Of a DNA stretch of 64,000 bases, positions 18,635 to 32,804 are shown one piece after another. The stretch covers positions 62,001 through 126,000 of the forward strand of contig NZ_BCRM01000008.1 of the NCBI RefSeq assembly GCF_001552595.1. The letters run 5' to 3'. Position numbers and translations under genes: made by a program. Each line of letters starts with the position of its first letter. The first letter of the stretch is position 1. The DNA comes from Rhodococcus erythropolis NBRC 15567 (lineage in GTDB: Bacteria > Actinomycetota > Actinomycetes > Mycobacteriales > Mycobacteriaceae). Under the pieces are notes generated by a model that searched no databases, was not told where the DNA came from, and worked only from the letters and a program-made list of their open reading frames with translations.

Positions 18635-18699
18635 TGTAACCGTGCGTGGCTGATCCGGGCACGCCGCGAGTACACGCAGTGTCGAGGAAGGCGTGACCC

Positions 18700-20349
18700 A
18701 TGATGTCCGTAAAGCCTGGCGCAGCCGATACGTCGGCCGCCGTAACCACCGCCTCCTGGCTACCACTGATCGTGGTGGTCCTCACGCAGATTCAGGCGTC
18801 GTTCGCCGTCAATGCGCTGACCGTCTCGATGGCCGGCATCACCACCGATCTCGACACTCCTGCAACAAGTGTCGGCACCGCGATCACCGCAGGCACCTTT
18901 GCCATGGCTGCCTTCATTCTGCTGGGCGCCAAGATCGGCGCCCGCTACGGGACGCGTTTGGTCTTCCAGATTGCCGTCGCGATTCACGGTCTCGCGATGG
19001 CTGCGGTCGCTCTGAGCCAGAGCCCGGCAATGCTGTTCGTGGCGCAAGCCGCGTCCGGCGCCGTGATCGCTCTCATCGCCCCCGCGTTGACGGTTTTCAT
19101 CGCCACGAACTTCAATGGCGATCAGCAGGCAAAGGCCATCGGTTACCTGGCAGCAGCAATCCCCGCAGCCGGTGTGCTGGCACTACTCATCGCCGGTTCC
19201 TTCGCGACGACCATCGGGTGGCGTTACTCCTTCGCCCTCGTCGTGGCGCTCGCCGTGGTCAACCTGGTCCTGAGTTTCCGTGTCAAACCTGTTCCCCCGC
19301 AGAAGGACATCACCATCGATTGGGCCGGCGCCGCACTGGCTGCCGTTGCCGTCATCCTGCTCAGCTTCGGTTTCAGCGGCCTGAACTCGTGGGGCGTCAT
19401 CCTGGCCACCGACGCTGCGCCGTTCTCGGTCATCGGTGTTTCACCCGCGGCCATCCTGATAGTCCTCGGCACCATCTGCGCGCAGGGATTCTTCCAGTGG
19501 ACGCGAAGCCGCAAGGCGCAGAACAAGCCTCAGCTCTTCAACCTCGACGTCCTCAAGACCGGCGCCGAGCGCGCCACCACGATCTGCATGGCGACGATGA
19601 TGTTCGTGGGAACCGCGGCCAACTTCCTCATTCCGCTGTACATGCAGATCATCCAGGGCCGCAGCAGCTTGCAGACGTCGTTCTCGATCATCCCGTACAC
19701 ACTCTCGATCTTCATCGCGAGCACCGTCGTCGCGCGCCTGTACAAGACGTACTCCCCGCGTCTGATCGCACGAGCCGGGTTCGTCGTTGTTGCCGCTGGA
19801 CTCATCCTGTTGGCCTTCACCATTCGTGGTGACTGGCATCAGATCTTTGTTGTCATCGGCCTTATCACCCTCGGCCTCGGGCAGGGCGCCATCGTTGCGC
19901 TGGTGTTCAACACCCTCCTCACCGCAGCTCCCAAGGAACTGGCCGGTGACGTCGGCGCCTGGCGAGGACTGGTACACAACATGTCCGGCAGTGTCGGCAT
20001 CGCGGTGGCCAGCGTGTTCGCCGTCGGAATCCTCGGTACCCTCGTCAGCTCGCAGCTGATCGACAACCCCACCATCCCGGCATCGCTCAAGGTCGAGTCA
20101 GGGATCAATCTCGACCAGGTCAACTTCGTCCCCAACGATCAACTCGTCGTGACGCTCGAAAACACCTCCGCGACACAGGCACAGATCGACGAAGCCATCC
20201 GGATCAACACCGAAGCGCGCCTGCGCGCACTGCGAACCTCGCTGCTCGTACTCGCCGGGCTCTCTCTGCTCGCCATCATTCCGGCCGGGCGCATGCCCAA
20301 CGAAGTACCTGCTCTGGACGAACCGCAACCCACGAAGGGCAAGAAGTAA
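18700..20349 (+). CDS. MFS transporter, DHA2-like drug/metabolite exporter
   Basis: A 549-residue major facilitator protein with about 12-14 hydrophobic helices. The motif GAKIGARYGTR near residue 72 is the MFS loop 2-3 signature. A ribosome site AGGAAGG precedes tandem ATG codons. It is followed after 3 nt by a DUF6325 gene and then a SHOCT gene, all apparently one operon. Probably an efflux pump using the proton gradient; substrate unknown. Confidence 0.82.
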   Translation: MMSVKPGAADTSAAVTTASWLPLIVVVLTQIQASFAVNALTVSMAGITTDLDTPATSVGTAITAGTFAMAAFILLGAKIGARYGTRLVFQIAVAIHGLAMAAVALSQSPAMLFVAQAASGAVIALIAPALTVFIATNFNGDQQAKAIGYLAAAIPAAGVLALLIAGSFATTIGWRYSFALVVALAVVNLVLSFRVKPVPPQKDITIDWAGAALAAVAVILLSFGFSGLNSWGVILATDAAPFSVIGVSPAAILIVLGTICAQGFFQWTRSRKAQNKPQLFNLDVLKTGAERATTICMATMMFVGTAANFLIPLYMQIIQGRSSLQTSFSIIPYTLSIFIASTVVARLYKTYSPRLIARAGFVVVAAGLILLAFTIRGDWHQIFVVIGLITLGLGQGAIVALVFNTLLTAAPKELAGDVGAWRGLVHNMSGSVGIAVASVFAVGILGTLVSSQLIDNPTIPASLKVESGINLDQVNFVPNDQLVVTLENTSATQAQIDEAIRINTEARLRALRTSLLVLAGLSLLAIIPAGRMPNEVPALDEPQPTKGKK

Positions 20350-20352
20350 CCG

Positions 20353-20805
20353 ATGTCCAACCAAGACCAATTCGGTCCGATCGAATACGTTGCCGTCGAG
20401 TTTCCCAGCGGTGCACCGACCTCCGCGGGATTCGAGCAGCTGCTCACTCTCGTCGACTCCGGAGTGATCCGCATCCTCGACCTCGAGTTCGTCACCAAAG
20501 CCGCCGACGGATCGGTATCCGTCGTACCCGCGTCCACCTTCGAACTCGCAGATTTCGATTTGGCGCAGTTCGACGGCGCTGCCTCCGGACTGCTCGACGC
20601 CGGCGACATCGCTGCCGTTGGTGACGAGTTGGCCGCCGGAAGTGTTGCCGCCGTACTCGTCTACGAGGAACTGGCAATACTGCCGGTCATCGAGGCCTGG
20701 ACCCGCAGCGGCGCAAAGGTTGTCACCGAAGGTCACCTGAGCGTGGACGAACTGGCTGCTGCACTGGACAACACCGCACCGGATACCACGGAGAAGGACG
20801 CATGA
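20353..20805 (+). CDS. DUF6325 family protein
   Basis: A 150-residue acidic protein without membrane helices. It opens with GPIEYVAVEFP, has a repeated VDSGVIRILDLEFV-like beta-alpha pattern and ends in a D/E-rich tail. This corresponds to DUF6325 (formerly within DUF1269-like proteins), of unknown function. Its stop shares ATGA with the SHOCT gene start, a pairing seen often for this family. Confidence 0.7.
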   Translation: MSNQDQFGPIEYVAVEFPSGAPTSAGFEQLLTLVDSGVIRILDLEFVTKAADGSVSVVPASTFELADFDLAQFDGAASGLLDAGDIAAVGDELAAGSVAAVLVYEELAILPVIEAWTRSGAKVVTEGHLSVDELAAALDNTAPDTTEKDA

Positions 20806-21095
20806 GTTTCTTGAGGCGAGCCGGCCGCGTAGCCGTCGCAAGCTCCATTCACGGCAATGTTCAGCGCCGTCAGCGGACCCGTTGGGCCGCCGAAGATCAG
20901 GCCCGCGCAGCGCAGGTCCAGCCGGTGCCGCCGATTCCCGATCTACCGCCCCTCCCGCCGCAGGCAGCTCCGGCAGAATCGGAAATGTCGATGGACGCGA
21001 AGCTCGAACAGCTCACCAAGCTGGGTGAACTCAAGAACGCCGGCGTATTGACGGAGGCCGAGTTCGAGACCCAGAAGGCGCGCATCCTCGGCTGA
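20802..21095 (+). CDS. SHOCT domain small protein
   Basis: A 97-residue protein. A basic N-terminal third and a proline-rich linker (PPIPDLPPLPP) lead to a C-terminal SHOCT domain of about 30 residues (LEQLTKLGELKNAGVLTEAE...). SHOCT domains are short oligomerisation or tethering modules. It is translationally coupled to the DUF6325 gene. Confidence 0.78.
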   Translation: MSFLRRAGRVAVASSIHGNVQRRQRTRWAAEDQARAAQVQPVPPIPDLPPLPPQAAPAESEMSMDAKLEQLTKLGELKNAGVLTEAEFETQKARILG

Positions 21096-21096
21096 A

Positions 21097-21783
21097 CTAG
21101 CTGGGCCGCCCGAGTGCAAAAGCCATGACGGGAAGCTGCGTCGTCGCGAGATTCAACAGAGATGCCACTCGGGCATCGGTGAATCCTGCGATGGCGCAGC
21201 CCACAAGTCCCATCGCCTCGGTCACAAGGTACAGATTCTGAACCAGCACACCGGCATCCACGTGCATCGTGCGGTAGTGCCGCATCGCGTACTTCTCGAG
21301 CGGCGCTTCCACGTCGGCGACCACAAACAGAAGAACCGGGAACACGTCGACGAACTCGGGCTGGAGAAGGCTCGCTCGAAGGTTTCCTTGTACGCCACCC
21401 GGCCGAACGGCCTCAGCACGGCCTTCCTGGATGTACCGGTACACCCCGGCTCCAAGCGAGTGTCCGGGTTGGCTGACAACAAACGACAGCGTCAGTTCGC
21501 GCATCCCACCGGCCGTCGGGCTGCTGACCAGACTGTGGTGCAGCACATTTGAAAGCTCATCGATTCCCAAAGCAACTTGCGCTGGGTTGTAGTGGCTCCG
21601 TCGTGCCTGCAAGATATCCGGAAAGCCCTGGGCCGGCAGTGGCGTCGGCGCCGGTAATTCAACGAACTCAGACGTCACCGGCGGCAGGGCGGCCTCGTCG
21701 AACAGTAGCTCCGACGGAGCCACCGTCCGGTCAAGCGCAGCATGCAGCGATACGACGGCCTCGACCCGCTCGAGGGCGGTCAA
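21097..21783 (-). CDS. SagB-like FMN-dependent dehydrogenase (nitroreductase fold) of the RiPP locus
   Basis: About 228 residues of the SagB/ThcOx nitroreductase-like family. The FMN-phosphate motif ARRSHY is near residue 62. Later come the segments FVVSQPG, AGVLVQNLYLVTEAMGLVGCAIAGF, characteristic of SagB-type dehydrogenases. In azole-forming RiPP systems SagB enzymes oxidise azolines to azoles. It is the last gene of the metal-chelate importer operon; the only good start is TTG 21783, 4 nt after the binding-protein stop, so expression relies on coupling. It could modify the peptide or reduce/release the imported metal complex; the first is favoured by family. Confidence 0.72.
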   Translation of the reverse strand: MTALERVEAVVSLHAALDRTVAPSELLFDEAALPPVTSEFVELPAPTPLPAQGFPDILQARRSHYNPAQVALGIDELSNVLHHSLVSSPTAGGMRELTLSFVVSQPGHSLGAGVYRYIQEGRAEAVRPGGVQGNLRASLLQPEFVDVFPVLLFVVADVEAPLEKYAMRHYRTMHVDAGVLVQNLYLVTEAMGLVGCAIAGFTDARVASLLNLATTQLPVMAFALGRPS

Positions 21784-21787
21784 GACC

Positions 21788-22768
21788 TCACGAACCCGGG
21801 TGCAGCAGGCGAGATACCTCGGCAGCTCCGTCGATCGACACCAACTCACCGGCGAACCACGCCTCCGGGACGGCAAAGATCGCATTCGACGTCGCGGCAG
21901 GCGTCCCGGCAAATGCGGTGCGAGCAGCCTCGAGTGTGGATTCCCGAGCCGACTCGGTGGAGTAAACGACAAGAATTGCCTGCGGCGACTTCGCGAGTAT
22001 CGATTCGGTGGCTACCTGGCCGAAGTACTTCCCATCCGGAAGGTCGCTCTCGTAGAGGTTCTTTCCCCCGGCCGCCTCGAGCACGCTGCTGTAGAGGCCC
22101 CTCGCCAGAGCGTAGGACTGCCCCTCCGAAACCTGAACCATCACAGTGGGAACCGGCTCCTTCCCGGCCACGGATGCCTCGGTTTCTGCGAGCGACTTCT
22201 TGCCATCTGCCAGGAGAATTGCTGCTTCGTCACTTGTTCCGGTCAGGGCACCGAGACCGTCGATGTCGGACCAGACGTCGTCGATCCGCCCCTCGGTGAC
22301 CGCCTTGTGGCAGTAGCCGCTGTTCACGAAGATCGGGATGCCGAGGTCACGCAATTCGTCCATGCTCTGCAGTCGGTCACCGTCGAACCAATATTCCCCG
22401 TCGGAGACGATCAGATCCGGACGGGCGTCGAGCAACGCTTCTTTCGCGGGAACTCCGGTGCTCAGTACCGGCACGGCCGCGAACTGATCCGCGAGTTCGG
22501 GGCTGGGAGGAGAGAGATCGGTATTCGATTGTCCGACAATGCGGTCGGCGGCACCGAGTTGAATCAGAAGCTCCGTCATCGACGGATACAGCGAGACAAT
22601 CCGCTCCGCCGTCTTGGGCAACGTGACCTCGCGGTCACAATTGGTGACGGAAATCTTCTCGGACGACGACGTCGCCGAATCCGCCGTGGAGTTTCCGCAT
22701 GCGGTCAGTACTGCAGTGGCGGTAACGGCCGAGCACAACAGCGCGGCAGTACGTATCGAGGATTTCAA
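21788..22768 (-). CDS. Metal-chelate ABC importer, substrate-binding lipoprotein (FecB/BtuF type)
   Basis: A 326-residue lipoprotein. The lipobox L-T-A-C places the lipidated Cys at about residue 24, and a Ser-rich linker follows. The TroA/BtuF-like bilobed fold shows in KTAERIVSLYPSMTELLIQLGAADRIVG and DARPDLIVSDG. TTG 22768 overlaps the ATPase stop as TTGA; the long upstream open frame lies inside the ATPase gene. The family binds Fe-siderophores, haem or cobalamin outside the membrane. Here the linked peptide-modifying genes suggest a peptide-metal complex as ligand (inference). Confidence 0.85.
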   Translation of the reverse strand: MKSSIRTAALLCSAVTATAVLTACGNSTADSATSSSEKISVTNCDREVTLPKTAERIVSLYPSMTELLIQLGAADRIVGQSNTDLSPPSPELADQFAAVPVLSTGVPAKEALLDARPDLIVSDGEYWFDGDRLQSMDELRDLGIPIFVNSGYCHKAVTEGRIDDVWSDIDGLGALTGTSDEAAILLADGKKSLAETEASVAGKEPVPTVMVQVSEGQSYALARGLYSSVLEAAGGKNLYESDLPDGKYFGQVATESILAKSPQAILVVYSTESARESTLEAARTAFAGTPAATSNAIFAVPEAWFAGELVSIDGAAEVSRLLHPGS

Positions 22769-23559
22769 GACACTGCTTCTTTCGTGTGTAGTAGCGGAGG
22801 GGCGAACGAGAGCAAGGGACGCCCGGTCAAGGGGTGAGTGCCGAGATGCACCTGAACCCCGAATACTTCGGACAGCAGGTCCTCGGTGAGGACCTCGGCC
22901 GTTGGTCCTGTCGCGACAACTACCCCGCCGGAGAGCAGACAGACGTAGTCGCAATATGCTGCGGCCAAGGCGAGTTCATGGATCGCGACAATCGTCGTAG
23001 TACCGAGTTCGGCGACCAATTCCATCAATTCGAGTTGAGCTCGGATGTCGAGGTGGTTGGTGGGCTCGTCCAAGACCAGCACCGAAGGTTGTTGAGCGAT
23101 CGCCCGGGCCAACATCACACGCTGCTTTTCTCCGCCGGACAGTTCGGCGAAGAGTCGTGATCCGAAGCCGTGCATACCGGTTCGCGCCAGGGCGGCACTG
23201 ACGATGTCCCGGTCGATTTCACCGAGTCGAGAGAATGCGCTGTGATGCGGCGTCCGGCCCGTCGCCACCACCTCGCGGACGCTGAACGAGAAGTCGGATG
23301 AATGCTCCTGCCCCACAACACCGATGATGCGTGCTGCTGATCGGGGCGAGAGATCGTCCCAAACATTCACCTCGTCCACCTTCACGATTCCGCTTCTCGG
23401 CTTCATCGAGCGATACAACGCGCGCAGGAGGGAGGACTTTCCACTACCGTTCGGCCCGACGAGTCCGACCACGCTCCCCTCGGGCGCTTCGAGATCTACG
23501 CCGGAAACCACCAGACGCCCACCTCGAACGACGTGAATCCCGCTGGCCGACAATCTCAT
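22765..23559 (-). CDS. Metal-chelate ABC importer, ATP-binding subunit (FecE/BtuD type)
   Basis: A 264-residue ABC ATPase. Walker A GPNGSGKSS is at about 35-43, signature LSGGEKQRV near 139, Walker B VLVLDEPTNHLD near 160 and the switch His in AIHEL near 193. ATG 23559 overlaps the permease stop by 4 nt. It powers import through the permease encoded just upstream. Confidence 0.92.
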   Translation of the reverse strand: MRLSASGIHVVRGGRLVVSGVDLEAPEGSVVGLVGPNGSGKSSLLRALYRSMKPRSGIVKVDEVNVWDDLSPRSAARIIGVVGQEHSSDFSFSVREVVATGRTPHHSAFSRLGEIDRDIVSAALARTGMHGFGSRLFAELSGGEKQRVMLARAIAQQPSVLVLDEPTNHLDIRAQLELMELVAELGTTTIVAIHELALAAAYCDYVCLLSGGVVVATGPTAEVLTEDLLSEVFGVQVHLGTHPLTGRPLLSFAPPLLHTKEAVS

Positions 23560-24623
23560 GACTGCGCACCTCCGTCGCGTCGAAGTAACCAGAGGAAGAA
23601 CGGGGCACCCAATCCGGCGGTGATGATTCCGAGCGGCAATTCGTTGGGCGCATCCAACATCCGAGCCGCAAGATCGACGATCACCAGGAAGGTTGCACCG
23701 ACCAGCGCGGTTGCCGGCAGCAGCTTGCGGTGGTCGGATCCGACCAGGAGTCTTACGGCGTGCGGCACGAGTAGCCCCACGAAACCGATTCCGCCGGCAA
23801 CGGATACAACAACCGCGGTCAGCAACGACGCGATCACCAGTAGTAGCAACCTGGTACGGCGCACGTCGACGCCCACCGATTGCGCGCTCTCGTCTCCCAT
23901 AGCCAGCGCGTTGAGTTGGCGAGACTGCGTCAACAGCACTGCCGCACAGACGGTGATCACTGCGGCGGGCACACCGAGATCCGACCAACCTGCCCCGCTC
24001 ACCGAACCGAGTAACCAGAAGAGCACTCCCGAAAACTGACTCGGATCGGCGCGCAACTGCACAAAACTTGTTGCAGCCGAGAGCAGATAGCCGATGGCAA
24101 CTCCGGCCAAGACCATGCGCAGCGGGACAAGCATTCCCTCGCGCCGACCCAGTACGAGAACCGCGATCAGGGAAACCATGGCCCCCAGGAAGGCTGCCAC
24201 CGGAACACCGATCGACAGGCCGGTTCCGATGCCCGTCGTCATGATCAGCACTGCGCCGAAGGACGCTCCCGAACCGACACCCAAGATGTACGGATCGGCA
24301 ATCGGATTGCGCACCAACGCTTGCAGCACTGCGCCGGCCAGTGACAACCCGGCACCCGCCAGTGCTGCGATCAGAATGCGCGGGACCCGCAGTCCCCACA
24401 CGATCCGGTCGAGTAGCGGGTCGACCGGCGGCCCACCGGCGTGCGCGTACAACACCGCGAATACGTCGGCGAAGGACAGCGACGCAGCGCCCGACCACAC
24501 CGCGACGGTGGAGACGGTGGCAAGAACCACGGCCGTGGCCAACAGAAACGGGACGTATCCGCGGTCGCCGACGGGATGCGCACGCGACGGGGCATCAGGT
24601 ACTGCTTCGCTGGTCAGCGTCAT
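23556..24623 (-). CDS. Metal-chelate ABC importer, permease (FecCD/BtuC type)
   Basis: A 355-residue permease with about ten helices. The FecCD signature ALVRNPIADPYILGVGSGAS is present in the first third, and GIGFVGLLVPHAVRLLVG marks the ATPase-coupling region. ATG 24623 has a good AGGAG site; an upstream in-frame start at 24650 lacks one. It is the first gene of the importer-sagB operon. A Zur-like element lies about 55-75 bp upstream of the start, so zinc control is likely by inference. Confidence 0.9.
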   Translation of the reverse strand: MTLTSEAVPDAPSRAHPVGDRGYVPFLLATAVVLATVSTVAVWSGAASLSFADVFAVLYAHAGGPPVDPLLDRIVWGLRVPRILIAALAGAGLSLAGAVLQALVRNPIADPYILGVGSGASFGAVLIMTTGIGTGLSIGVPVAAFLGAMVSLIAVLVLGRREGMLVPLRMVLAGVAIGYLLSAATSFVQLRADPSQFSGVLFWLLGSVSGAGWSDLGVPAAVITVCAAVLLTQSRQLNALAMGDESAQSVGVDVRRTRLLLLVIASLLTAVVVSVAGGIGFVGLLVPHAVRLLVGSDHRKLLPATALVGATFLVIVDLAARMLDAPNELPLGIITAGLGAPFFLWLLRRDGGAQS

Positions 24624-24675
24624 CGCACTCCTGAATAGGTAGGGGTTCACAGGGATGAACAGGTGGATCTAACCA

Positions 24676-24696
24676 TAACGACAGTCGTTTTCATTA
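24676..24696 (-). promoter_or_regulatory. Zur-like operator before the importer operon
   Basis: The 21-bp site lies between the MFS stop and the permease start. Read on the minus strand it begins TAATGAAAACGAC and ends TGTCGTTA. Its core AACGAC-A-GTCGTT is a perfect 6-bp inverted repeat. It fits the actinobacterial Zur box layout (TGAAAATGATTTTCA type) at most positions and does not fit the IdeR iron box. The match is by eye. Confidence 0.5.
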
Positions 24697-24708
24697 ATAG
24701 TGACATGC

Positions 24709-25968
24709 TCATCTGTGCGGACAAGGGTCGGTCCGCAGGGCGCTCACCCACGCAAAGAGTGCCCCGACCAGCGCAAAGCTGCACGCAACGAGGTAGGCGG
24801 TGCCGATATCCCATCGTCCTGCAATTGCCCCGGCAATCAAGGCACCCACCGGCGAACCACCCCAGGCGACCATCCTCGCCGTGGTGTTCACGCGCCCCTG
24901 TAGACGATCCGGAGTCAGACGCTGACGTGCACCGATGCCGTTGAGGATGGTGACAGTCGCACAGCCGGAGTAGACGGTCAGAGCGGTGATCGCTGCGGCG
25001 GTGTTGCTGGTTGTCGCAACGACGAACAGCACCACCGGGGCGATGGTCAACGCACCGACCGTGATCGCGCCGACCGGCCATTGCGCCGGTAGGCGTGGGA
25101 GCAAGACTGCGCCGACCACGCCACCCACGGAGACTGCTGTCCACACGGCCCCGATCATCGGACTCGACGTCGAAATCCCCAGCCTCTCGGTCGCGTACAC
25201 CACCAGGAGCGCCGTGACAGCACCCTGCGTCAGCGAATTGACGAAGCCGACGCCGGTCAAGGCTCGCAGGAGCGGAGACTGCCAGAGGAAGCTGAGGCCT
25301 TCGCGTATGTCACGCGCAATTCCGGGTTCCGACCTCTTCGGCGCCGCAGGAATACCCGAGAACGAGGCTCCGATCGACGCCATGGCCAGCCCGGCCAATA
25401 CGTAGGCCAGTGCATCAGCACCCAATGCGTAGGCCGGGCCGATCGACGCCACGAGCACTCCGGCAATAGCCGGAAAGGCAACATCGACGAGCGTGCTGGA
25501 AGTCCACAGCGCACTGTTGGCGGTCGGTATTCTCTGCCGACCGACCAGCGCAGGCAACGCTCCGAAAGCTGCGGCATCGAACCACACGAAACACGTTCCG
25601 ATGCACATCGATACGCCGACCGCGTGCCATGCCGTCAACACACCGAGCGCCTGAGCCGCCGGAATACTCGCCAAGGCAAGAGCAGCGACGGCCTGCGCAC
25701 ACAGGATGACCGTCCGCCGGTTGACTCGGTCTGCCACGGCGCCCGCGAACAAGCCGAATACGAGGTACGGCAGAACCGTCCCCGCAGCCGCGAGCGAGGT
25801 GAGAAACGGAGACCGGCTGATGTCGAACACCAGAATCGGCATTGCCACACCGGTGACCGCCGCACCGGCCACGGCAATCGTGCGAGCCGTGAAGAACAAT
25901 CGAAACGATCTGTCCCGAAACACATGTGGTTGCGCTTCGGCGGATCCCGTCGTCGAGGTCTCGCTCAT
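24709..25968 (-). CDS. MFS exporter, EntS-like, of the RiPP locus
   Basis: A 419-residue major facilitator with 12 hydrophobic segments. The FRDRSFRLFFTARTIAVAG start and the loop motif GAVADRVNRR near residue 77 resemble the DHA3/EntS group, which exports siderophores and macrolides. It is transcribed divergently from the precursor gene, sharing a 92-bp promoter region with a perfect inverted repeat. Likely job: export of the mature peptide. Substrate is inferred from position only. Confidence 0.8.
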   Translation of the reverse strand: MSETSTTGSAEAQPHVFRDRSFRLFFTARTIAVAGAAVTGVAMPILVFDISRSPFLTSLAAAGTVLPYLVFGLFAGAVADRVNRRTVILCAQAVAALALASIPAAQALGVLTAWHAVGVSMCIGTCFVWFDAAAFGALPALVGRQRIPTANSALWTSSTLVDVAFPAIAGVLVASIGPAYALGADALAYVLAGLAMASIGASFSGIPAAPKRSEPGIARDIREGLSFLWQSPLLRALTGVGFVNSLTQGAVTALLVVYATERLGISTSSPMIGAVWTAVSVGGVVGAVLLPRLPAQWPVGAITVGALTIAPVVLFVVATTSNTAAAITALTVYSGCATVTILNGIGARQRLTPDRLQGRVNTTARMVAWGGSPVGALIAGAIAGRWDIGTAYLVACSFALVGALFAWVSALRTDPCPHR

Positions 25969-25989
25969 GTATGCACTCTCTTGTACCTG

Positions 25990-26018
25990 TTGCTCTCCGT
26001 GGCGATCTTTCGTACGGT
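25990..26018 (+). promoter_or_regulatory. Candidate promoter of the RiPP operon
   Basis: TTGCTC (25990-25995) and TACGGT (26013-26018) are spaced by 17 bp and match the -35/-10 layout loosely. The Zur-like inverted repeat starts 6 bp after the -10 box, where a bound repressor would block initiation. The precursor start follows 42 bp further. Confidence 0.35.
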
Positions 26019-26023
26019 GGCAT

Positions 26024-26048
26024 CGTAATGGAAATGGTTTCCATTACG
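26024..26048. promoter_or_regulatory. Perfect inverted repeat, Zur-like operator in the divergent RiPP/exporter promoter
   Basis: Two perfect 11-bp arms, CGTAATGGAAA and TTTCCATTACG, flank a 3-nt spacer TGG. The inner 15 bases, TGGAAATGGTTTCCA, match the Streptomyces-type Zur box TGAAAATGATTTTCA at 12 positions. It lies between the MFS exporter and the precursor gene and ends 12 bp before the precursor start, so it can control both directions. Zinc regulation is inferred from motif likeness. Confidence 0.65.
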
Positions 26049-26060
26049 GAAGGGATGACA

Positions 26061-26249
26061 ATGAGCAACATTTCGTTCGACAGCGTCTCCAACTCGGCTC
26101 CGGCCAATGCACTCCAGGGCGTCGGCACCAACGCCCTCGTCGACAACCCGTTCACCTTCGAGCCGGTTGCCGAGGCGACGTCCGCACATGCTCTGCAGGG
26201 TGTGGGCACCAACGCCCTCGTCGACAACCCGTTCAGCTTCCAGAGCTGA
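26061..26249 (+). CDS. RiPP precursor peptide with two tandem core-like repeats
   Basis: A 62-residue peptide, ATG 26061 behind a strong GGAAGGG site. Residues 1-16 (MSNISFDSVSNSAPAN) look like a short leader or recognition part. The 15-residue unit ALQGVGTNALVDNPF occurs identically at 17-31 and 44-58, a period of 27 residues. Each is followed by a hydroxyl residue and Phe (TF, then SF). There is no Cys, so any heterocycles would come from Ser/Thr. The Thr/Ser swap after NPF keeps the beta-hydroxyl, hinting at a modified position. Size, repeats, and position before leader-binding and YcaO genes mark it as the substrate peptide. Product structure is unknown. Confidence 0.8.
   Translation: MSNISFDSVSNSAPANALQGVGTNALVDNPFTFEPVAEATSAHALQGVGTNALVDNPFSFQS
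26109..26234 (+). repeat. Two 45-bp coding repeats, 81 bp apart, inside the precursor gene
   Basis: Copies at 26109-26153 and 26190-26234 encode the same 15 residues. The 3' two thirds of each copy are identical in DNA as well, while the 5' third differs at synonymous positions only. This points to an intragenic duplication kept by selection on the peptide. Confidence 0.9.
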
Positions 26250-26299
26250 AACCTTCCCTGATCCGGACTGTTTCGACGGTCTGATCTGCCGATGACCCC

Positions 26300-26327
26300 G
26301 CCCGCATCCGACTCGTCGGGTGCGGGC
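26300..26327 (+). terminator. Hairpin between precursor and biosynthetic genes (attenuator-like)
   Basis: Arms 26300-26312 (GCCCGCATCCGAC) and 26315-26327 (GTCGGGTGCGGGC) pair with one G-T wobble, leaving a very small loop. The stem stands just before the AAGGAG site of the next gene. No T tract follows. Such stems between precursor and enzyme genes often lower downstream transcription or protect the short precursor mRNA. Confidence 0.5.
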
Positions 26328-26343
26328 ACCGACAAGGAGATCC

Positions 26344-27156
26344 GTGTACGCCCTCGCCGACGGACACCACCTGTATCCGACACCGGACGGTGTTTGGCAT
26401 TACCTGACACCGGACGAGAACGCAGTCACGATCGGTGCGCCGGCCGAAGACCTCGCGGAACTCGACAACTTTCTCAGGCGCTCTGGTTCGGTGCTCGGCC
26501 CGGGAGCGATCGAGATCGCCGACGCTCTCGTCTCTCGCGGCGTGCTGGCTGTTCCAGGTCAAGTGCCAGAGATTCCGGGTCCACAGCGTGTGCTGATGGA
26601 CGGGGTCGGACCCGTTGCCGATGCCTGCATCGCTCTGCTCTCCAAGGCTCTTCCGGACCTCGACGTCGTATCCACCACTGCGCCAATCGAAGACGACGTT
26701 GCGTCGTCGGACCTCGTACTGTCGGTTGCCGACGCTCCTCCTCACGACGCGTGGTCGGAACTCGATACCTGGTGCCGCCACAGCCGAACTCCGTGGCAAC
26801 GCGTCCACGCAGAGCTGGGTGAGATCTGCATCGGTCCCTTCTTCGACGGCATCGACAGCGCGAGCTACCGGGACGTCTGCGGTCGACGCCTTGCCGCGTC
26901 ACGCGTACCGGATCACCTTCTGGCGCTGTGGAACCACCTCGCCGACAGTGAACGTCGTCCGCTTGGACTTTCACCCACCACAGCCGCAATGGTCAGTGCA
27001 CTTGCATGTTCGGGCGTCGTGGCTAGTTCTTACGGCGCACCGCAATCACACCTTCACCACCAGATCCGGATGAATCCACGAACCCTGATGATGACTCGAC
27101 ATCCCGTGCTACCACTGCCAGGCGGCGTTCTCGAACCTTCGCCGACGCTCCGGTGA
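26344..27156 (+). CDS. TOMM precursor leader-peptide-binding / E1-like partner protein
   Basis: A 270-residue protein, GTG start with AAGGAG site. The N-terminal 85 residues (YALADGHHLYPTPDGVW..., then LDNFLRR) fit the RiPP recognition part. Residues about 90-200 follow the E1/ThiF-like pattern of TOMM cyclodehydratase partner proteins: DGVGPVADACIALL, DLVLSVAD, then VHAELGEICIGPFFDG. The zinc Cys pair usual after this point is reduced to YRDVC, so the metal knuckle is probably lost. It should bind the precursor leader and hand it to a YcaO enzyme. The stop overlaps the hydrolase start (GTGA). Shorter than most relatives. Confidence 0.7.
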   Translation: MYALADGHHLYPTPDGVWHYLTPDENAVTIGAPAEDLAELDNFLRRSGSVLGPGAIEIADALVSRGVLAVPGQVPEIPGPQRVLMDGVGPVADACIALLSKALPDLDVVSTTAPIEDDVASSDLVLSVADAPPHDAWSELDTWCRHSRTPWQRVHAELGEICIGPFFDGIDSASYRDVCGRRLAASRVPDHLLALWNHLADSERRPLGLSPTTAAMVSALACSGVVASSYGAPQSHLHHQIRMNPRTLMMTRHPVLPLPGGVLEPSPTLR

Positions 27157-28580
27157 TCTCACTCGGAGTGAAGATCCCGGCAGCAGACGGTTCTTCGCTG
27201 GCTACGGATGTGCTTCTCCCAGATTCTTCACCTCGGGGACTGATCGTGATCCGCACCCCGTACGGACGCGGGTGGCATCTGGCCGAGGGGGTCGAATGGC
27301 GATCGCGAGGAATTGCATTCATCTGTCAGGACGTACGTGGACGGCACGATTCCACCGGATCTTGGGAACCCTACGTTCACGAGCGCGAGGACGCCGCCGC
27401 CCTTGCCGAGTGGCTGCAGGATCAGCCGTGGACACCCGAGTGCGTCATCGCAAGCGGGGCTTCGTATGCGGCCGGAACTGCGTGGGCCTTTACTGCCGAG
27501 ACCAACGGCGCCGATCGGGCATTTCGTGCTCGCGGCGTCGTCTCCAAAGTGCCGACCATCGGAAGCGACCGCGTCAAACGTGATCCCTCGGGGATACTTC
27601 TCCTCGCCGAGCATCTGGCGTGGTGGGGCGAGCACGGAGATTCGTCTTCCTCTCGTGAGGGTTTCATCCCTGCCCTGATGCGCTCGGATTCGTCTTTGCT
27701 GGAACATCTCCCGGTGCAGTCGATGATCGAGGAGGTTGGCCTGACCTCCGATTCACCGGGCTGGTTGACGCCGATCCGTCGCGCTCGTGAGCGCGAAGAC
27801 TTCGGTGGCGATGATCTGGTGTCCGCGGACGAACTCTCCGAACTCGACGTCGCCGGGCTGCACATCGGCGGTTGGGACGATGCGATGATTCGGGAGACAC
27901 TGCGGCACTTCGCATCCGTGTGGCGTGCGCCGCAGAGTTTGATCGTGGGTCCCTGGGCGCACGACCTCCGCCCTGGAAGGGTCGGCGAGACAAGTTTCGG
28001 CCGCCTTCAGGTCGAGTGGATGGAATCGATATTCTCGGCGCGGCCCGTGACCATCAATCGGGTGTTCGACCGGGGTGCAGGCGATTGGTCGACCGAACCG
28101 TATGTCACGGGTGCGAATCGCGTTCGTCTCGAACCAGACCCGAGGACGGCGCCTTTCAACTTCACGCACCACGCAGACGAGGGCCGAAACGACTGTGTTG
28201 TCTGGACTTTCGACATGGAGGTCGAGTGTGTGCTGTCGGGAATGCCTTCGGTGGAGTTGACAGTGCATTCGCCCGAGGGCGAAGCTGACTGGATCGTCGA
28301 GCTGAGCATCGTCGATAGCGCCGGAGTCACCAGGTCGATCGCTCGTGGGGCCGGCGTCAGCCTTTGCTCCGGCACGTTGACCATAGATCTCGATCCCGTG
28401 TTGCACACTGTGCGCGCGGGTGATGTCTTGACACTGCGGATCGCCGGCTCGGACTTCCCACGGCTCGCACGCAATCTCGGAGACGGTGATCGCTATCGAG
28501 GAACACGCAGTACCGCACTGCACCAATCATTTTCCGGGTCGTTGACCCTGCCGATACTCGGAGGAACTGCCGGTGGATGA
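27153..28580 (+). CDS. CocE/NonD family serine hydrolase of the RiPP locus
   Basis: A 475-residue alpha/beta hydrolase of the X-Pro dipeptidyl-peptidase (S15)/cocaine esterase class. The nucleophile motif GASY gives S104, GGWDD gives D242 and GPWAHD gives H270, so the catalytic triad is intact. CQDVRGRHDSTG near 59-70 is the family oxyanion segment. The beta-sandwich C-terminal domain (about 300-475) is present. It lies between the leader-binding and YcaO genes with overlaps of 4 and 8 nt, so it is surely in the pathway. Possible jobs: leader or repeat-linker cleavage, or hydrolysis of an amide or ester in the peptide. Bottromycin also pairs YcaO enzymes with an alpha/beta hydrolase, but of another class. 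Confidence 0.82.
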   Translation: MISLGVKIPAADGSSLATDVLLPDSSPRGLIVIRTPYGRGWHLAEGVEWRSRGIAFICQDVRGRHDSTGSWEPYVHEREDAAALAEWLQDQPWTPECVIASGASYAAGTAWAFTAETNGADRAFRARGVVSKVPTIGSDRVKRDPSGILLLAEHLAWWGEHGDSSSSREGFIPALMRSDSSLLEHLPVQSMIEEVGLTSDSPGWLTPIRRAREREDFGGDDLVSADELSELDVAGLHIGGWDDAMIRETLRHFASVWRAPQSLIVGPWAHDLRPGRVGETSFGRLQVEWMESIFSARPVTINRVFDRGAGDWSTEPYVTGANRVRLEPDPRTAPFNFTHHADEGRNDCVVWTFDMEVECVLSGMPSVELTVHSPEGEADWIVELSIVDSAGVTRSIARGAGVSLCSGTLTIDLDPVLHTVRAGDVLTLRIAGSDFPRLARNLGDGDRYRGTRSTALHQSFSGSLTLPILGGTAGG

Positions 28581-29913
28581 CTTGCTGGTCGACGCCCGGA
28601 GCGGCGTGCTGACCTCACTGGAACCACACATTCGCTCGGACATGCCGACGGGCTGGGTCGGTTGGGCCGCGAGGGTGGCCGACACCAGAAACTTCGGCGG
28701 CAGCGGTTCACTGTTTCGCGCGGACCCTTACGGATTCGGGGCTTCGATACGCGACGACGCAGCAGCTCGCGGGGCTGCAACCGGTGAGGCAGTCGAAAGA
28801 TATTGCGGCAACGTGGTCCCCGAAGATCTGATCCGCAGTAGTGCGTCAGCGCTGGAACTGGCAGGCTCACGGGTCGTCGATCCGGCGAAATTTGCGTTGT
28901 ACAGCGAGGATCAGTACCGCCTTCCCGGATTCCCCTTTGTTCCCTTCACATCGGCTCTGGAAGTCCGCTGGGCGCTGGGTCACACCATGGACGAAAAAGT
29001 GCCCACCTATGTGCCAGCCGCCCTGACCTATCTCGGGTACTATACCGGCACCCGTCGCGGCGAACCACCGATCGCGTCGTTGCAGTACGCCGGAATCGCC
29101 GCGGGACGCTCACGCGCCGAGGCCGAGATGTCTGCTCTGCTGGAACTTCTCGAACGCGATGCCACCGCACTGTGGTGGTGCGGGGACCGGTCACAGCCGG
29201 CAATCGAGCTTTCCGACTGGGAGCGGTTACCTGCGCACCGCCAACTCGGGGATCTGGAGAGCCAGGTCCGCAGCGTTCGAGTGCTTCTGCTTCCCTCCCC
29301 CTTCGGCATTCCCGTCGCCGCAGTGTGGATCCGGGATGACCGACGTGGATTGGTCGCGCTGGGCACAGCTTGTCGACCAACGGTGGAGGCGGCAGTCTCG
29401 AAGGCGCTTGTCGAGGCGTACGCCGTACTTGCCATCACGATCGACCTCGCCGACCCCGACGGGCCGACCTGGCGCAGCGTGGCGGACGGAACGCTGCCGG
29501 CGCACCTGTACAAACCCTTTCGGGCCGACCGTCGTTACCGGGACGAGTTCGATGCGCAGTGGAAGGACGTCGTCGATCTGCCGACCGTCGCCCAGCTGTA
29601 TCTCGACCCCGTGATGGCTGAGGCAGCGGAAGAGCATCTTTTCGACTACACCGAAACACGCTCGGTATCAGAGGTTCCCGACGAAGATCCTGTGAATCTT
29701 GCTTCTCTGGTAGTCCTTCTGACGTCTCGAGGGTACCAACCGATTTCCGTCGATCTCACCACCCGCGACATCTCGATTGCCGGGTTGCACGTCGTCCGCG
29801 TCCTGTCTCCCGGCCTCTACAACAATGCGCCGGCAGCTTTTCCCCTTCTTGGAGGTAGCAGATTGACCAGCGCATCGACCACCCATCTGCATCTGCCGGT
29901 CCCTCTCGCATGA
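28573..29913 (+). CDS. YcaO domain peptide-modifying enzyme 1
   Basis: A 446-residue YcaO protein, GTG 28573 overlapping the hydrolase by 8 nt. ATP/Mg-binding motifs are visible: GEAVERYCGN at 71-80 with E72, E75 and R76, and EMSALLELLERDA near 190-205. YcaO enzymes activate a backbone amide with ATP so that a nucleophile can attack, giving azolines, thioamides or amidines. The C-terminus ends L-P-V-P-L-A, a remnant of the PxPxP tail of azoline-forming YcaOs. With no Cys in the precursor, Ser/Thr-derived oxazolines or a macroamidine are the candidates. Confidence 0.87.
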   Translation: MDDLLVDARSGVLTSLEPHIRSDMPTGWVGWAARVADTRNFGGSGSLFRADPYGFGASIRDDAAARGAATGEAVERYCGNVVPEDLIRSSASALELAGSRVVDPAKFALYSEDQYRLPGFPFVPFTSALEVRWALGHTMDEKVPTYVPAALTYLGYYTGTRRGEPPIASLQYAGIAAGRSRAEAEMSALLELLERDATALWWCGDRSQPAIELSDWERLPAHRQLGDLESQVRSVRVLLLPSPFGIPVAAVWIRDDRRGLVALGTACRPTVEAAVSKALVEAYAVLAITIDLADPDGPTWRSVADGTLPAHLYKPFRADRRYRDEFDAQWKDVVDLPTVAQLYLDPVMAEAAEEHLFDYTETRSVSEVPDEDPVNLASLVVLLTSRGYQPISVDLTTRDISIAGLHVVRVLSPGLYNNAPAAFPLLGGSRLTSASTTHLHLPVPLA

Positions 29914-31202
29914 GGTCTTTGCTCGTCGACCGCCGAACTGGGATCATTCGAGAGTTGGTCGACGCCGTTGTTCCCCAGCACTTTCCGCCGGAGTTCAAGC
30001 TGATTCACTCGTATGTCTGCGATTCGGCACGCTTTTCACCCTGGTCCAGCGACTCGGCGGGCGCCGGATATTGCTTCGATCTGGGTGACCGTGCGCGGCC
30101 TACCGCAGCTGCGGTAGGCGAAGCGGTGGAACGGTATTGCGGCAACATCGTCGCCAAACCGATCGTCCGCGGGTCGGCTGATGCATTGATCGGAGCAAGC
30201 ATCGACCTGTCACAACTCGCGCGTTTCGACGCCGCCCAGTACGCGCAGCCACAGTTCCCGTTCGTCGAACCAACCGACGATCTCGAGTTGGACTGGACTC
30301 TCGGAGTCGACCTGATCACGGGTTCGGATATCTGGGTACCGGCCGAACTCGTCTGGGGTTCGTATCCTCATTTCGTCGCCCGGACGGGTCCGGCGATCTC
30401 TCCAGTAGCTCAGGCGGGTCTCGCCGCCGGTCCCACGACGGAATTCGCGATACGGAATGCAGTGCGCGAGATAGTCGAGCGCGACGCGATGACGCTCTCC
30501 TGGACCGGAAGGCGCGGCGTTCGGATTGTCACCGGGATGCCAGAGCAGCTCCTTCGACTGGGCAATCACGAAACCCTGTCGACGAGATGGCTGGCATTCG
30601 AGAGTGATTTCGGGATCCCGGTACTCGGCGCCCTCGTCCGCGACCACCGCACCGGATACTCGACCATGGGAACCGCCTGCCACGAGGACGCACAGACCGC
30701 TGCGTTCAAGTCGCTCGGGGAAGCGCTTCAGCTGCAACTTCTTTCCGCCGACTACGACGACCCGGAGAGCGGCATCGGTCGAGCCGCGGCCTCCCCGACC
30801 AGCCCGCTTGCGCCTTGGCGAGCTGACCGAAGCTATGCAGGCGCCTACCGATCGGACTTTGCCGACGTCATGGACTACGGATGCCACTTGCAGCTCCACC
30901 TGGACCCGGAGATCCAAGCACGATTCGAGAGTGAGCTGGCAGGTGCCGTCGTCGGCGAGGTGGACCTCGACTCTCTGACGTCACCCATCGACACCGAAAG
31001 CGCACTGACAGGTTCGGGTTTCAGGCCGGCATGGGTCGATCTGACCACAACTGATGTTCTCCGCGCCGGCCTGCGCGTCGTCCGCGTCGTCGTTCCCGGT
31101 TGTCTCACCAATGCGGCCGCCGGATTGCCGTTTCTCGGCTCGCCCCGACTAGTCGACGGTCTTGCCGGACGTCCGCCTCGTACCATCCCATTGCCGCACT
31201 GA
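29910..31202 (+). CDS. YcaO domain peptide-modifying enzyme 2
   Basis: A 430-residue YcaO protein starting at an ATGA overlap with the first YcaO gene. GEAVERYCGN is conserved at 70-79 (E71, E74, R75) and a second acidic helix AVREIVERDA is near 185-195. It opens with the same LLVDxRxGxxxxL pattern as YcaO 1, showing an old duplication, but the rest has diverged strongly. It ends T-I-P-L-P-H, again proline-rich. Both could act as a heterodimer or perform different modifications. The last 54 bp overlap the convergent dehydrogenase gene. Confidence 0.87.
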   Translation: MRSLLVDRRTGIIRELVDAVVPQHFPPEFKLIHSYVCDSARFSPWSSDSAGAGYCFDLGDRARPTAAAVGEAVERYCGNIVAKPIVRGSADALIGASIDLSQLARFDAAQYAQPQFPFVEPTDDLELDWTLGVDLITGSDIWVPAELVWGSYPHFVARTGPAISPVAQAGLAAGPTTEFAIRNAVREIVERDAMTLSWTGRRGVRIVTGMPEQLLRLGNHETLSTRWLAFESDFGIPVLGALVRDHRTGYSTMGTACHEDAQTAAFKSLGEALQLQLLSADYDDPESGIGRAAASPTSPLAPWRADRSYAGAYRSDFADVMDYGCHLQLHLDPEIQARFESELAGAVVGEVDLDSLTSPIDTESALTGSGFRPAWVDLTTTDVLRAGLRVVRVVVPGCLTNAAAGLPFLGSPRLVDGLAGRPPRTIPLPH

Positions 31203-32120
31203 CAGTTCCGGAACTGCCAGTTGTAACGACTCTGCGGTCTCCACCGCGTGAAACCAAGTCGGCTTCGAGATTGCACTGTCTCGAATCACCTGCACGGCAC
31301 GCGCGGCGATGGTTGCCGTCGCGGCCGACTGGCTACGCCCCGAAACCCACAGCGCCGGGCCGGTATCCGTTCGGGCCATCGCAACCCAACGATCCGAACC
31401 CCACAGCTTCTTCGGCACAACCTTCTGGAGGGCGGGCGCCCACGTCATGGCTGCAAGCCCGAGTGTCGCTGTGGACGTGTCCAATCGCAGGTACGTCCGC
31501 ACCGGAACACCAAGGTCGCGCGTCAACGCATGTTGGTCCGAAAAGTCCGCCCGCACAGCAGGACCGGATCGGTACCCGGTCGCGTCCGCCGGCATCCGAA
31601 ACGTCTTCATCCCGGTGTAGTTCCGGATCGATCGCCCGTCGGGATCGGGAAACCTCGTTCCCAACATCCCGTACGTCCACGCCGTCGCGGCCGGTCCGTG
31701 TAGTTCTCCGCCGCCGAGGCCGATCACGATGTCCACGGGTCCCCCGCCGAGTCGATGCGCTTCGGCGGCAAGGACACTGGTCAATCCCGGCGCCAATCCG
31801 ACGCCCATCAGAACTGGGCCGTCGACCGCTTCCAGTTCTTCGCAGTAGCTCGAGGTTGCCGTGATGTCGACGAACGCCGCCCCACCGCGTACCGCTTCTT
31901 CTGCCAGGCGAACGTCGTCGAAACCCGACGCATTCACCACGACATCGAAGTCTCGAACCACAGCCGCGTACGCGCCTGGTTCTTTAAGATCAACGACGAC
32001 GTCCGCGCGGGCACGATCGCGCCCGGCGGAGTACGCGGAGATTTCGGGGACCTTCGCGAGTTGTTTCATCAGGGGAATCCCGACGGCACCGTAGCCACCG
32101 AGTACAAGAACCTTCGTCAT
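31149..32120 (-). CDS. Saccharopine dehydrogenase-like NAD(P)-binding protein
   Basis: A 323-residue protein with an N-terminal Rossmann motif VLVLGGYGAVG (residues 4-14) and the VVVNASGFDD segment of the saccharopine dehydrogenase/trans-enoyl reductase-like family. Function in this group is mostly unknown; lysine metabolism is unlikely from context. It is divergent from a TetR gene with a tandem operator between them, so that TetR probably controls it. Its 3' end overlaps the second YcaO gene by 54 bp on the opposite strand. Confidence 0.75.
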   Translation of the reverse strand: MTKVLVLGGYGAVGIPLMKQLAKVPEISAYSAGRDRARADVVVDLKEPGAYAAVVRDFDVVVNASGFDDVRLAEEAVRGGAAFVDITATSSYCEELEAVDGPVLMGVGLAPGLTSVLAAEAHRLGGGPVDIVIGLGGGELHGPAATAWTYGMLGTRFPDPDGRSIRNYTGMKTFRMPADATGYRSGPAVRADFSDQHALTRDLGVPVRTYLRLDTSTATLGLAAMTWAPALQKVVPKKLWGSDRWVAMARTDTGPALWVSGRSQSAATATIAARAVQVIRDSAISKPTWFHAVETAESLQLAVPELSVRQWDGTRRTSGKTVD

Positions 32121-32139
32121 TATTTCGCCTCCCGAGTCG

Positions 32140-32168
32140 CTAGAGTTCGACTCTAGAGTTAAACTCTA
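32140..32168. promoter_or_regulatory. Two overlapping palindromes, operator of the TetR/dehydrogenase pair
   Basis: CTAGAGT-TCG-ACTCTAG (32140-32156) is followed directly by TAGAGTT-A-AACTCTA (32154-32168). Both are perfect inverted repeats of the same half-site (AGAGTT/AACTCT). The pair sits between the two divergent starts and ends 4 bp before the TetR start, ideal for repression of both. Confidence 0.7.
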
Positions 32169-32171
32169 ATC

Positions 32172-32798: not shown

Positions 32799-32804
32799 CT
32801 GGGA

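What the first reader, a model, noticed from the sequence alone, without database searches (positions are those of the whole stretch)
21097..31202. Candidate zinc-linked RiPP metallophore locus: repeat precursor, two YcaOs, E1-like, hydrolase, SagB, exporter and chelate importer
Seen: a 62-residue repeat peptide followed by a leader-binding/E1-like gene, a CocE-type hydrolase and two YcaO genes, coupled by overlaps of 4, 8 and 4 nt among the four enzymes. Divergent are an EntS-like MFS exporter and a full Fec/Btu-type importer whose operon ends with a SagB-like enzyme. Known: YcaO, E1-like and SagB proteins modify ribosomal peptides, and Fec/Btu importers take up metal chelates. Inferred: the peptide is modified, exported, binds a metal and is taken back. 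A ribosomal metallophore with its own Fec-type importer would be unusual; methanobactin (copper) is the obvious comparison but uses other enzymes.
Basis: partly seen in the sequence, partly recalled or inferred. Interest (0 to 1): 0.95.

Follow-up and report, generated by a model that had tools for sequence, protein, structure and literature searches.

The report
Zinc-switched ribosomal peptide metal scavenger
This bacterium, likely a Rhodococcus, carries a gene cluster of the known streptamidine peptide family whose two operons each begin with a predicted binding site for the zinc-starvation regulator Zur; relatives in other genera carry predicted sites too, so these little-understood peptides likely help cells scavenge zinc.

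Summary
In detail: a 62-residue precursor with two identical 15-residue repeats, an E1-like protein, a CocE hydrolase, two YcaOs, and divergent exporter, Fec/Btu importer and SagB-like genes, with the stated 4, 8 and 4 nt overlaps. The chemistry is a known kind: the precursor scores 105 bits (cut-off 45) against NCBIfam NF040715, 'streptamidine-related', and the streptamidine paper (PMC8442711) already mentions a two-YcaO Rhodococcus subset and suspected metal import, but saw no metal binding and no phenotype. New here is the control. Two palindromes precede the two operons. A pattern made from one finds 7 places in the 6.59-Mb genome: both boxes, znuA, a COG0523 GTPase, an smtB-zur-like pair and two TetR-type loci. 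A Zur matrix trained on zinc genes away from these clusters finds a box just upstream of the precursor in 29 of 29 sampled family loci (15 genera, both precursor models). Relatives often lie beside zinc genes (COG0523 within 15 kb in 8 of 29; 0.3 expected). Best explanation: a Zur-controlled RiPP that likely acts as a zincophore. Zur control is well supported by sequence; zinc binding and uptake are untested here and were negative for streptamidine itself.

The parts
21097..21783 (-). SagB-like flavin dehydrogenase (AmiE counterpart by position and family), last gene of the importer operon; open frame runs to 21972, likely TTG start at 21783
   Evidence: TIGR03605 82.7 bits, Nitroreductase PF00881; start from the orthologue span and the sequence
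21788..22768 (-). Substrate-binding lipoprotein of the importer (Peripla_BP_2)
   Evidence: PF01497 83.9 bits; closest solved sequences are named periplasmic, vitamin B12-, iron- or haem-binding proteins; TTG start overlaps the ATPase stop by 4 nt
22765..23559 (-). Importer ATPase (Fec/Btu type)
   Evidence: PF00005; the 25 best NCBIfam models (of 195) are Fec/Btu/F420-0 and other ABC models, all below their cut-offs
23556..24623 (-). Importer permease (FecCD family)
   Evidence: PF01032 324 bits
24676..24696 (.). Predicted Zur box 2, in the gap between the exporter gene and the importer operon
   Evidence: 3 mismatches to the box-1 palindrome, one of 7 places in the whole genome; 26.1 bits with the independent matrix; 13 of 15 specified positions of a published actinobacterial znuA box
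24709..25968 (-). MFS transporter, predicted exporter (EntS-like)
   Evidence: MFS_3 PF05977 108 bits; EntS model 109 bits, below cut-off 324
26026..26046 (.). Predicted Zur box 1, palindrome between the divergent exporter and precursor genes
   Evidence: only 0-mismatch place in the 6.59-Mb genome (the pattern was made from it); 32.0 bits with the independent matrix; 13 of 15 specified positions of the published box
26061..26249 (+). Precursor peptide (AmiA-like, two cores)
   Evidence: NF040715 105 bits, cut-off 45, two stretches
26109..26153 (+). Repeat 1 ALQGVGTNALVDNPF (residues 17-31); predicted core ALQGVG
   Evidence: core placed by eye against the streptamidine core HLSATH before [S/T]NALV
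26190..26234 (+). Repeat 2 ALQGVGTNALVDNPF (residues 44-58)
26344..27156 (+). AmiB counterpart, predicted leader-binding/E1-like partner protein (open frame from 26320)
   Evidence: TIGR03882 27.7 bits, below cut-off 36.9; tblastn match in 11 of 11 NF040715-type loci and 3 of 18 NF040714-type loci; no PDB sequence match
27153..28580 (+). AmiC counterpart, CocE/NonD-S15 hydrolase, predicted leader-removing enzyme
   Evidence: TIGR00976 148 bits, PF02129 97.5 bits
28573..29913 (+). YcaO 1 (AmiD counterpart)
   Evidence: TIGR03604 247 bits; PDB sequence matches MusD, TruD, LynD
29910..31202 (+). YcaO 2
   Evidence: TIGR03604 222.5 bits, cut-off 219.25; 37% identical to YcaO 1

Best explanation
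This is a two-core, two-YcaO member of the streptamidine family of ribosomal peptides whose peptide operon and importer operon each carry a predicted Zur (zinc-starvation) box, and it likely makes a modified peptide that would be exported, bind zinc and be taken back through the Fec/Btu importer. Steps: (1) when zinc is short, Zur is predicted to leave box 1 and box 2, opening the precursor/enzyme operon, the MFS exporter and the importer/SagB operon together. (2) The E1-like protein is predicted to hold the precursor while the YcaOs modify the two ALQGVG-type cores; by homology with streptamidine the hydrolase would free the core N-terminus and a YcaO would close a six-membered amidine; the job of the second YcaO and of the SagB-like enzyme is unknown. 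(3) The MFS protein is predicted to export the product. (4) The SBP/FecCD/ATPase importer is predicted to recover the loaded product. Shown here: gene content, family membership of the precursor, the box sequences and their conservation. Inferred: Zur binding, modification, export, zinc binding and uptake.
For: Family: NF040715 and NALVxNPF-type cores shared with the streptamidine-type precursors. Zur in this genome: the palindrome made from box 1 alone, at up to 3 mismatches, hits 7 places in 6.59 Mb: box 1, box 2, COG0523, znuA, an ArsR/Fur-family pair read as smtB-zur, and two TetR-type loci; reversed control 2. Zur across the family: a palindromic motif learned blind from 42 upstream regions of ZnuA-like/COG0523 genes away from these clusters (22 with a site) puts a box within 400 nt upstream of the precursor match in 29 of 29 loci, 11 of NF040715 and 18 of NF040714 type, 15 genera, scores 19.7-35.0 bits. 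Distinct boxes over 18 bits: 64 in 568 kb of cluster loci, 9 in 1,052 kb of flanks, 0 in one mononucleotide shuffle per locus. Other FecCD loci: 1 of 22 fetched has a box. Neighbours: COG0523 within 15 kb of the precursor in 8 of 29 genomes (0.30 expected), ZnuA-like in 4 of 29 (0.33 expected); Cys-less L31, L36, L32 or S14 paralogues within 15 kb in 5 of 29, in each of the five with a predicted box before one of them. Importer: FecCD match in 28 of 29 loci. One genome (G384) has a precursor match with an internal stop and no YcaO match, while the same query finds the YcaO in 7 of 7 relatives, yet keeps importer and box, as an importer-only user of a shared product would.
Against: Russell et al. 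2021 (PMC8442711) found no metal binding by streptamidine, zinc included, and no metal-starvation phenotype of a YcaO mutant. The predicted Rhodococcus core ALQGVG has no His or Cys, so it offers few obvious zinc ligands. Box 2 is a weaker match (3 mismatches to the box-1 pattern); box 1 and box 2 each miss 2 of 15 specified positions of the published box. The weakest precursor box, L058 (19.7 bits), is not a clean palindrome. None of 12 zinc-linked query proteins matches within 30 kb of the precursor in the three Rhodococcus relatives. The degenerate pattern was written after seeing the sites in this genome, and 4 of its 8 places have no zinc gene that I recognised. Zur sites are predictions. 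The importer-only genome is one case. The importer genes are essential for streptamidine production (PMC8442711), which simple re-uptake does not explain.
Confidence: 0.55

Rival explanations
1. The peptide is made under zinc starvation but is not a zinc carrier: it is a signal, antibiotic or other effector, and the importer takes up something else (another organism's chelate, or the peptide as a signal).
For: No metal binding or metal-starvation phenotype for streptamidine, whose authors suggest signalling or development (PMC8442711); no His/Cys in the predicted core here.
Against: Importer linked in 28 of 29 loci and, here, under a predicted Zur box of its own; importer kept with a broken precursor and no YcaO match in G384; streptamidine showed no antibacterial or antifungal activity.
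Confidence: 0.3
2. The Fec-type importer works in maturation or retention of the peptide (for example recycling a periplasmic intermediate) and the product is an intracellular or envelope zinc buffer or chaperone.
For: Deletion of the importer genes abolishes streptamidine production (PMC8442711); COG0523-type GTPases are frequent neighbours.
Against: Exporter genes are linked (MFS match in 11 of 11 NF040715-type loci; ABC transporters in the streptamidine type by PMC8442711), and streptamidine is recovered from fermentation cultures (PMC8442711).
Confidence: 0.08
3. The boxes are sites of another Fur-family metal sensor (iron, manganese, nickel), so the peptide serves another metal.
For: Fec/Btu importers usually carry iron chelates or cobalamin (recalled); the motif is a general Fur-type palindrome (recalled).
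Against: The motif was learned from ZnuA-like/COG0523 genes, and the box-1 palindrome finds the smtB-zur-like pair of this genome; several clusters neighbour Cys-less ribosomal paralogues; no IdeR-type iron box in the window at up to 3 mismatches; no Rfam match in 18000-34000.
Confidence: 0.04
4. An ordinary azole-forming (LAP/TOMM) bacteriocin cluster with an unrelated importer next door.
For: SagD-type YcaOs and a SagB-like dehydrogenase.
Against: The core is not rich in Ser/Thr/Cys; the precursor belongs to the streptamidine-related family; importer and precursor share predicted control and co-occur across the family.
Confidence: 0.03

Closest known systems
Streptamidine (ami) cluster of Streptomyces albidoflavus J1074 (PMC8442711; main text read, no figures or supplements)
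   Same: ALV-motif precursor, AmiB-like E1-type protein, hydrolase, YcaO, flavin dehydrogenase, FecBCDE-type importer; a predicted Zur box lies upstream of the precursor also in unnamed relatives whose core reads exactly HLSATH (for example L069, L071, L072).
   Different: Two YcaOs, two repeats, core ALQGVG without the Ser at position 3 of streptamidine, MFS exporter instead of ABC transporters AmiT1-T2, one FecCD permease. The text names a Frankia/Rhodococcus/Clavibacter two-YcaO subset usually with motif-B precursors, to which this locus appears to belong (inferred); the text describes no product of that subset. 'Zur' does not occur in its main text. The J1074 cluster itself was not scanned here.
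Methanobactin (recalled)
   Same: Ribosomal peptide metallophore logic: make, export, re-import.
   Different: Other enzymes; no MbnB/MbnC-type family among the Pfam and NCBIfam hits of these proteins; copper rather than zinc (recalled).
Coelibactin of Streptomyces coelicolor (passages of PMC5472717; abstract start of PMC3430247 in a listing)
   Same: A zincophore pathway repressed by Zur in an actinobacterium, with znuABC and Cys-less ribosomal paralogues in the same regulon.
   Different: Non-ribosomal, not YcaO-made (recalled for the enzymes).
Bottromycin and klebsazolicin (as described in PMC8442711)
   Same: YcaO-made amidine rings; bottromycin also uses two YcaOs.
   Different: Different precursors and clusters; klebsazolicin blocks translation.

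Membership tests
Streptamidine-related RiPP family | Precursor over the cut-off of the family model, with the conserved ALV | tested here: met
   NF040715 105 bits, cut-off 45; NALV in both repeats
Streptamidine-related RiPP family | YcaO and hydrolase related to those of streptamidine-type clusters | tested here: met
   tblastn of the window's YcaOs and hydrolase matches 16 of 18 NF040714-type loci
Streptamidine-related RiPP family | E1-like AmiB counterpart | tested here: inconclusive
   model hit below cut-off; tblastn match in 11 of 11 NF040715-type but only 3 of 18 NF040714-type loci
Streptamidine-related RiPP family | Fec-type importer in the cluster | tested here: met
   21788-24623; FecCD match in 28 of 29 family loci
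Streptamidine-related RiPP family | YcaO placed in the streptamidine clade of a tree | not tested
   no tree was built; similarity only
Streptamidine-related RiPP family | Amidine ring in the product | not testable with these tools
   needs chemistry; predicted dehydrated masses
Zur regulon member | Zur box upstream of the operons, by a motif independent of this family | tested here: met
Zur regulon member | Zur protein binding and zinc-dependent expression | not testable with these tools
   needs EMSA and RNA
Zincophore (metallophore) system | Exporter and importer genes with the biosynthetic genes | tested here: met
   MFS 24709-25968, importer 21788-24623
Zincophore (metallophore) system | Product binds zinc | not testable with these tools
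   published test of streptamidine was negative (PMC8442711); I found no test of a product of this branch
Methanobactin | MbnB/MbnC-type enzymes | tested here: not met
   no such family among Pfam or NCBIfam hits of the ten proteins
Linear azol(in)e peptide (LAP) | Ser/Thr/Cys-rich core | tested here: not met
   core ALQGVG(T)

The most novel reading that the evidence does not exclude
The whole streptamidine family, over 230 species in the published count, is a Zur-controlled class of ribosomally made zincophores: YcaO-modified peptides exported under zinc starvation and recovered by Fec/Btu-type importers, the first RiPP metallophores for zinc, with this Rhodococcus locus a two-core, two-YcaO branch and importer-only cheaters already present.
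Probability: 0.42. Interest if true: 0.9.

Novelty: new variant of a known kind. Interest (0 to 1): 0.74.

Why it matters
The paper that described streptamidine states that its biological role remains unknown, after tests of metal binding and of growth under metal starvation. A predicted Zur box upstream of the precursor in 29 of 29 sampled loci turns that open question into a direct test: grow the producers without zinc, find the product they make then, and ask whether it carries zinc through the importer. If it does, it would be a ribosomal zincophore with a new chemistry, spread over many actinobacterial genera, and the importer would be a marker for both producers and users.

Tried and rejected
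Azole bacteriocin, iron control (no IdeR-type box; that consensus is recalled) and a riboswitch (no Rfam match in 18000-34000) were considered and dropped. My first palindrome had one N too many and found nothing; it was corrected. A first motif run took the minus-strand genes' upstream regions from the wrong side and was redone with strands set; only the second was used. The simple palindrome at up to 3 mismatches found a box near the precursor in only 8 of 11 NF040715-type and 4 of 18 NF040714-type loci; the matrix from zinc genes raised this to 29 of 29. Rows dropped before training: of 60 loci, 12 near the clusters (one of them 41 kb away) and 6 near-duplicate Rhodococcus rows; 20 of the remaining 42 gave no site. 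One locus per genome was taken; G081 has two more precursor copies that were not looked at. Boxes of three Rhodococcus loci (L065-L067) were left out of the gene listing. The degenerate pattern was fitted by hand to sites already seen, so its control of 0 is only a specificity check. One search listed more FecCD matches than the 30 for which it gave loci; the control of 22 is that part. The roughly 400-aa protein next to many NF040714-type precursors, considered as a zinc chaperone, gave no Pfam, NCBIfam or PDB match. Structure prediction was not run. Importer models and PDB relatives name no ligand for this SBP.

Searches for earlier reports, judged by listings: 'streptamidine' 12 papers, one of them (PMC8442711) with more than 3 mentions; at least 3 of RiPP, YcaO, Zur, zinc, metallophore: 582 papers, 20 listed, none on such a peptide by title; YcaO with 'zinc uptake regulator' 0; 'Zur regulon' with RiPP 3, none on such a peptide; two or more of streptamidine, zinc, zincophore, Zur: 5,227 papers, 15 listed, none of them with streptamidine; 'zincophore' with 'ribosomally synthesized' 6, none on such a peptide. 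Supplements, preprints outside the library and subscription papers were not seen, so 'not in print' means not found in these.
Full report
WHAT IS THERE. The window lies in a 6.59-Mb genome (G000, contig C8). Three same-genus genomes carry the same cluster; two of them, G409 and G410, share contig lengths with Rhodococcus qingshengii IEGM 1359 and Rhodococcus sp. P-2, so the host is likely a Rhodococcus (inference). On the + strand: a 62-aa precursor (26061-26249) with two exact copies of ALQGVGTNALVDNPF, an E1-like protein, a CocE-type hydrolase and two YcaOs, overlapping by 4, 8 and 4 nt. On the - strand: an MFS transporter, then permease, ATPase, binding lipoprotein and a SagB-like enzyme.

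THE CHEMISTRY IS A KNOWN KIND. The precursor scores 105 bits against NF040715, 'streptamidine-related RiPP repeat protein' (cut-off 45). I read the main text of the streptamidine paper without figures or supplements (PMC8442711). It describes over 230 such clusters, frequent Fec-type importers, a Frankia/Rhodococcus/Clavibacter subset with two YcaOs and usually motif-B precursors, and the amidine product, with core HLSATH, of the model strain. Its authors suspected metal import from the importer genes, but saw no metal binding by streptamidine (zinc included) and no metal-starvation phenotype; they call the role unknown. Aligned by eye on NALV, the Rhodococcus core is ALQGVG where streptamidine has HLSATH.

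HOW COMMON. NF040715 is found in 8 of 394 genomes drawn from the class, this genome included, and in 5 of 61 relatives: this genome, 3 of 27 others of its genus and one of another family of the order. The streptamidine model NF040714 is found in 18 of 394, 17 over its cut-off. I took one locus from each genome outside this one: 11 of NF040715 and 18 of NF040714 type. All 11 of the first have two YcaOs; 16 of 18 of the second have one, and two none: L068, cut off by a contig end, and L085. That the first type is the paper's motif B is my inference. The 29 loci come from 15 genera and are not independent: three are near-identical Rhodococcus loci.

CONTROL BY ZUR, IN THIS GENOME. Two palindromes lie in the two intergenic gaps: 26026-26046 between exporter and precursor genes, and 24676-24696 before the importer operon. 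The first, turned into a pattern and allowed 3 mismatches, occurs at 7 places in the whole genome (reversed control 2): the two boxes themselves; 4 nt before a COG0523/CobW GTPase; before a znuA gene; between a glycyl-tRNA synthetase and an ArsR/Fur-family pair read as smtB-zur; and at two TetR-type loci (the cobW, ZnuA and Fur families by Pfam, the rest by eye). A degenerate pattern, fitted by hand to sites already seen, occurs at 8 places at up to 1 mismatch (control 0); the three exact ones are box 1, the GTPase and znuA, box 2 has one mismatch, and four others lie at no zinc gene that I recognised. Each box agrees with 13 of 15 specified positions of the published actinobacterial znuA Zur box (passage of PMC5472717). 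In Mycobacterium smegmatis predicted Zur boxes precede znuABC, CobW-like genes, alternative ribosomal proteins and smtB-zur (passages of PMC7174638), the same company.

CONTROL BY ZUR, ACROSS THE FAMILY. To avoid circularity I learned a palindromic motif blind from 42 upstream regions of ZnuA-like and COG0523 genes that are not near these clusters; 22 gave a site. With this matrix a box over 18 bits lies within 400 nt upstream of the precursor match in 29 of 29 loci (lowest 19.7 in L058, next 23.6, highest 35.0). Distinct boxes: 64 in 568 kb around the clusters against 9 in 1,052 kb of outer flanks, several of which themselves precede zinc genes; none in one mononucleotide shuffle per locus. 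Among FecCD importers of ten of these genomes, 1 of 22 non-cluster loci has a box in its 4-kb stretch against 5 of 8 cluster importers; in the other three clusters the boxes found lie at the precursor (in one also 1.6 kb beyond it), outside that stretch.

ZINC NEIGHBOURS. A COG0523 gene lies within 15 kb of the precursor in 8 of 29 genomes (0.30 expected from hit counts and genome sizes) and a ZnuA-like gene in 4 of 29 (0.33 expected). Ribosomal paralogues without Cys (type B L31, type B L36, L32, S14) lie within 15 kb in 5 of 29, in each with a predicted box within 300 nt before one of them. Within 30 kb, ArsR/SmtB-like proteins match in 8 of 29 and His-rich proteins in 4 of 29. In the three Rhodococcus relatives none of the 12 query proteins matches within 30 kb.

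IMPORT AND EXPORT. A FecCD match is found in 28 of 29 loci. Loci differ in importer (one permease near 50% identity to ours, or two near 37%) and in exporter (MFS in 11 of 11 NF040715-type loci), which suggests that the coupling of peptide, import and export is kept while the parts are exchanged (inference). SagB-like matches to our gene are found in only 5 of 11 and 2 of 18 loci. In G384 (100% complete) the precursor match has an internal stop, no YcaO is found while the same query finds it in 7 of 7 relatives, the query's own genome and two others of the same genus among them, and no hydrolase is found near by; yet permease and SBP (90 and 75% identical to those of L072) and the box remain. 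This is one case.

MECHANISM. I favour a zincophore: made, exported and recovered under zinc starvation (0.55 for the whole chain). Zur control I hold very likely on sequence grounds; modification to an amidine is likely by homology; export and import are predicted from gene families; zinc binding is the weakest step, because the predicted core has no His or Cys and streptamidine did not bind zinc. A way out, which is inference: the dehydrogenase is essential although streptamidine carries no oxidation (PMC8442711), so the compound isolated may not be the final product, and the cultures may not have been zinc-starved. The main rival is a zinc-starvation peptide with another task (0.3).

VERDICT.

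Noticed in passing
L085 (G384): Streptamidine-type locus with an internal stop in the precursor match and no YcaO match in the genome (7 of 7 relatives match), but with the Fec importer and a predicted Zur box kept: a candidate importer-only user.
   Followed up: partly
L070:10152-11354 and relatives: A roughly 400-aa protein within 5 kb of the precursor in 16 of 29 loci, often beside predicted Zur boxes; the L070 copy matches no Pfam, NCBIfam or PDB sequence. A beta-propeller is my guess by eye.
   Followed up: partly
L063:13033-14007, L057, L062, L155: A ParA/CooC-like nucleotide-binding protein with a predicted Zur box just before it, near NF040715-type clusters in four genomes.
   Followed up: partly
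L057:16619-16924, L164:1748-2050: His-rich proteins of about 100 aa near predicted Zur boxes, possible zinc stores; no family match for the L057 protein.
   Followed up: partly
L243: A FecCD-type importer of G223, not in its streptamidine-type cluster, with a strong predicted Zur box (28.6 bits): perhaps another zinc-chelate importer.
   Followed up: no
window 20802-21095: Small protein whose C-terminus (LEQLTKLGELKNAGVLTEAEFETQKARILG) looks like a SHOCT domain (recalled, not searched), just outside the cluster.
   Followed up: no
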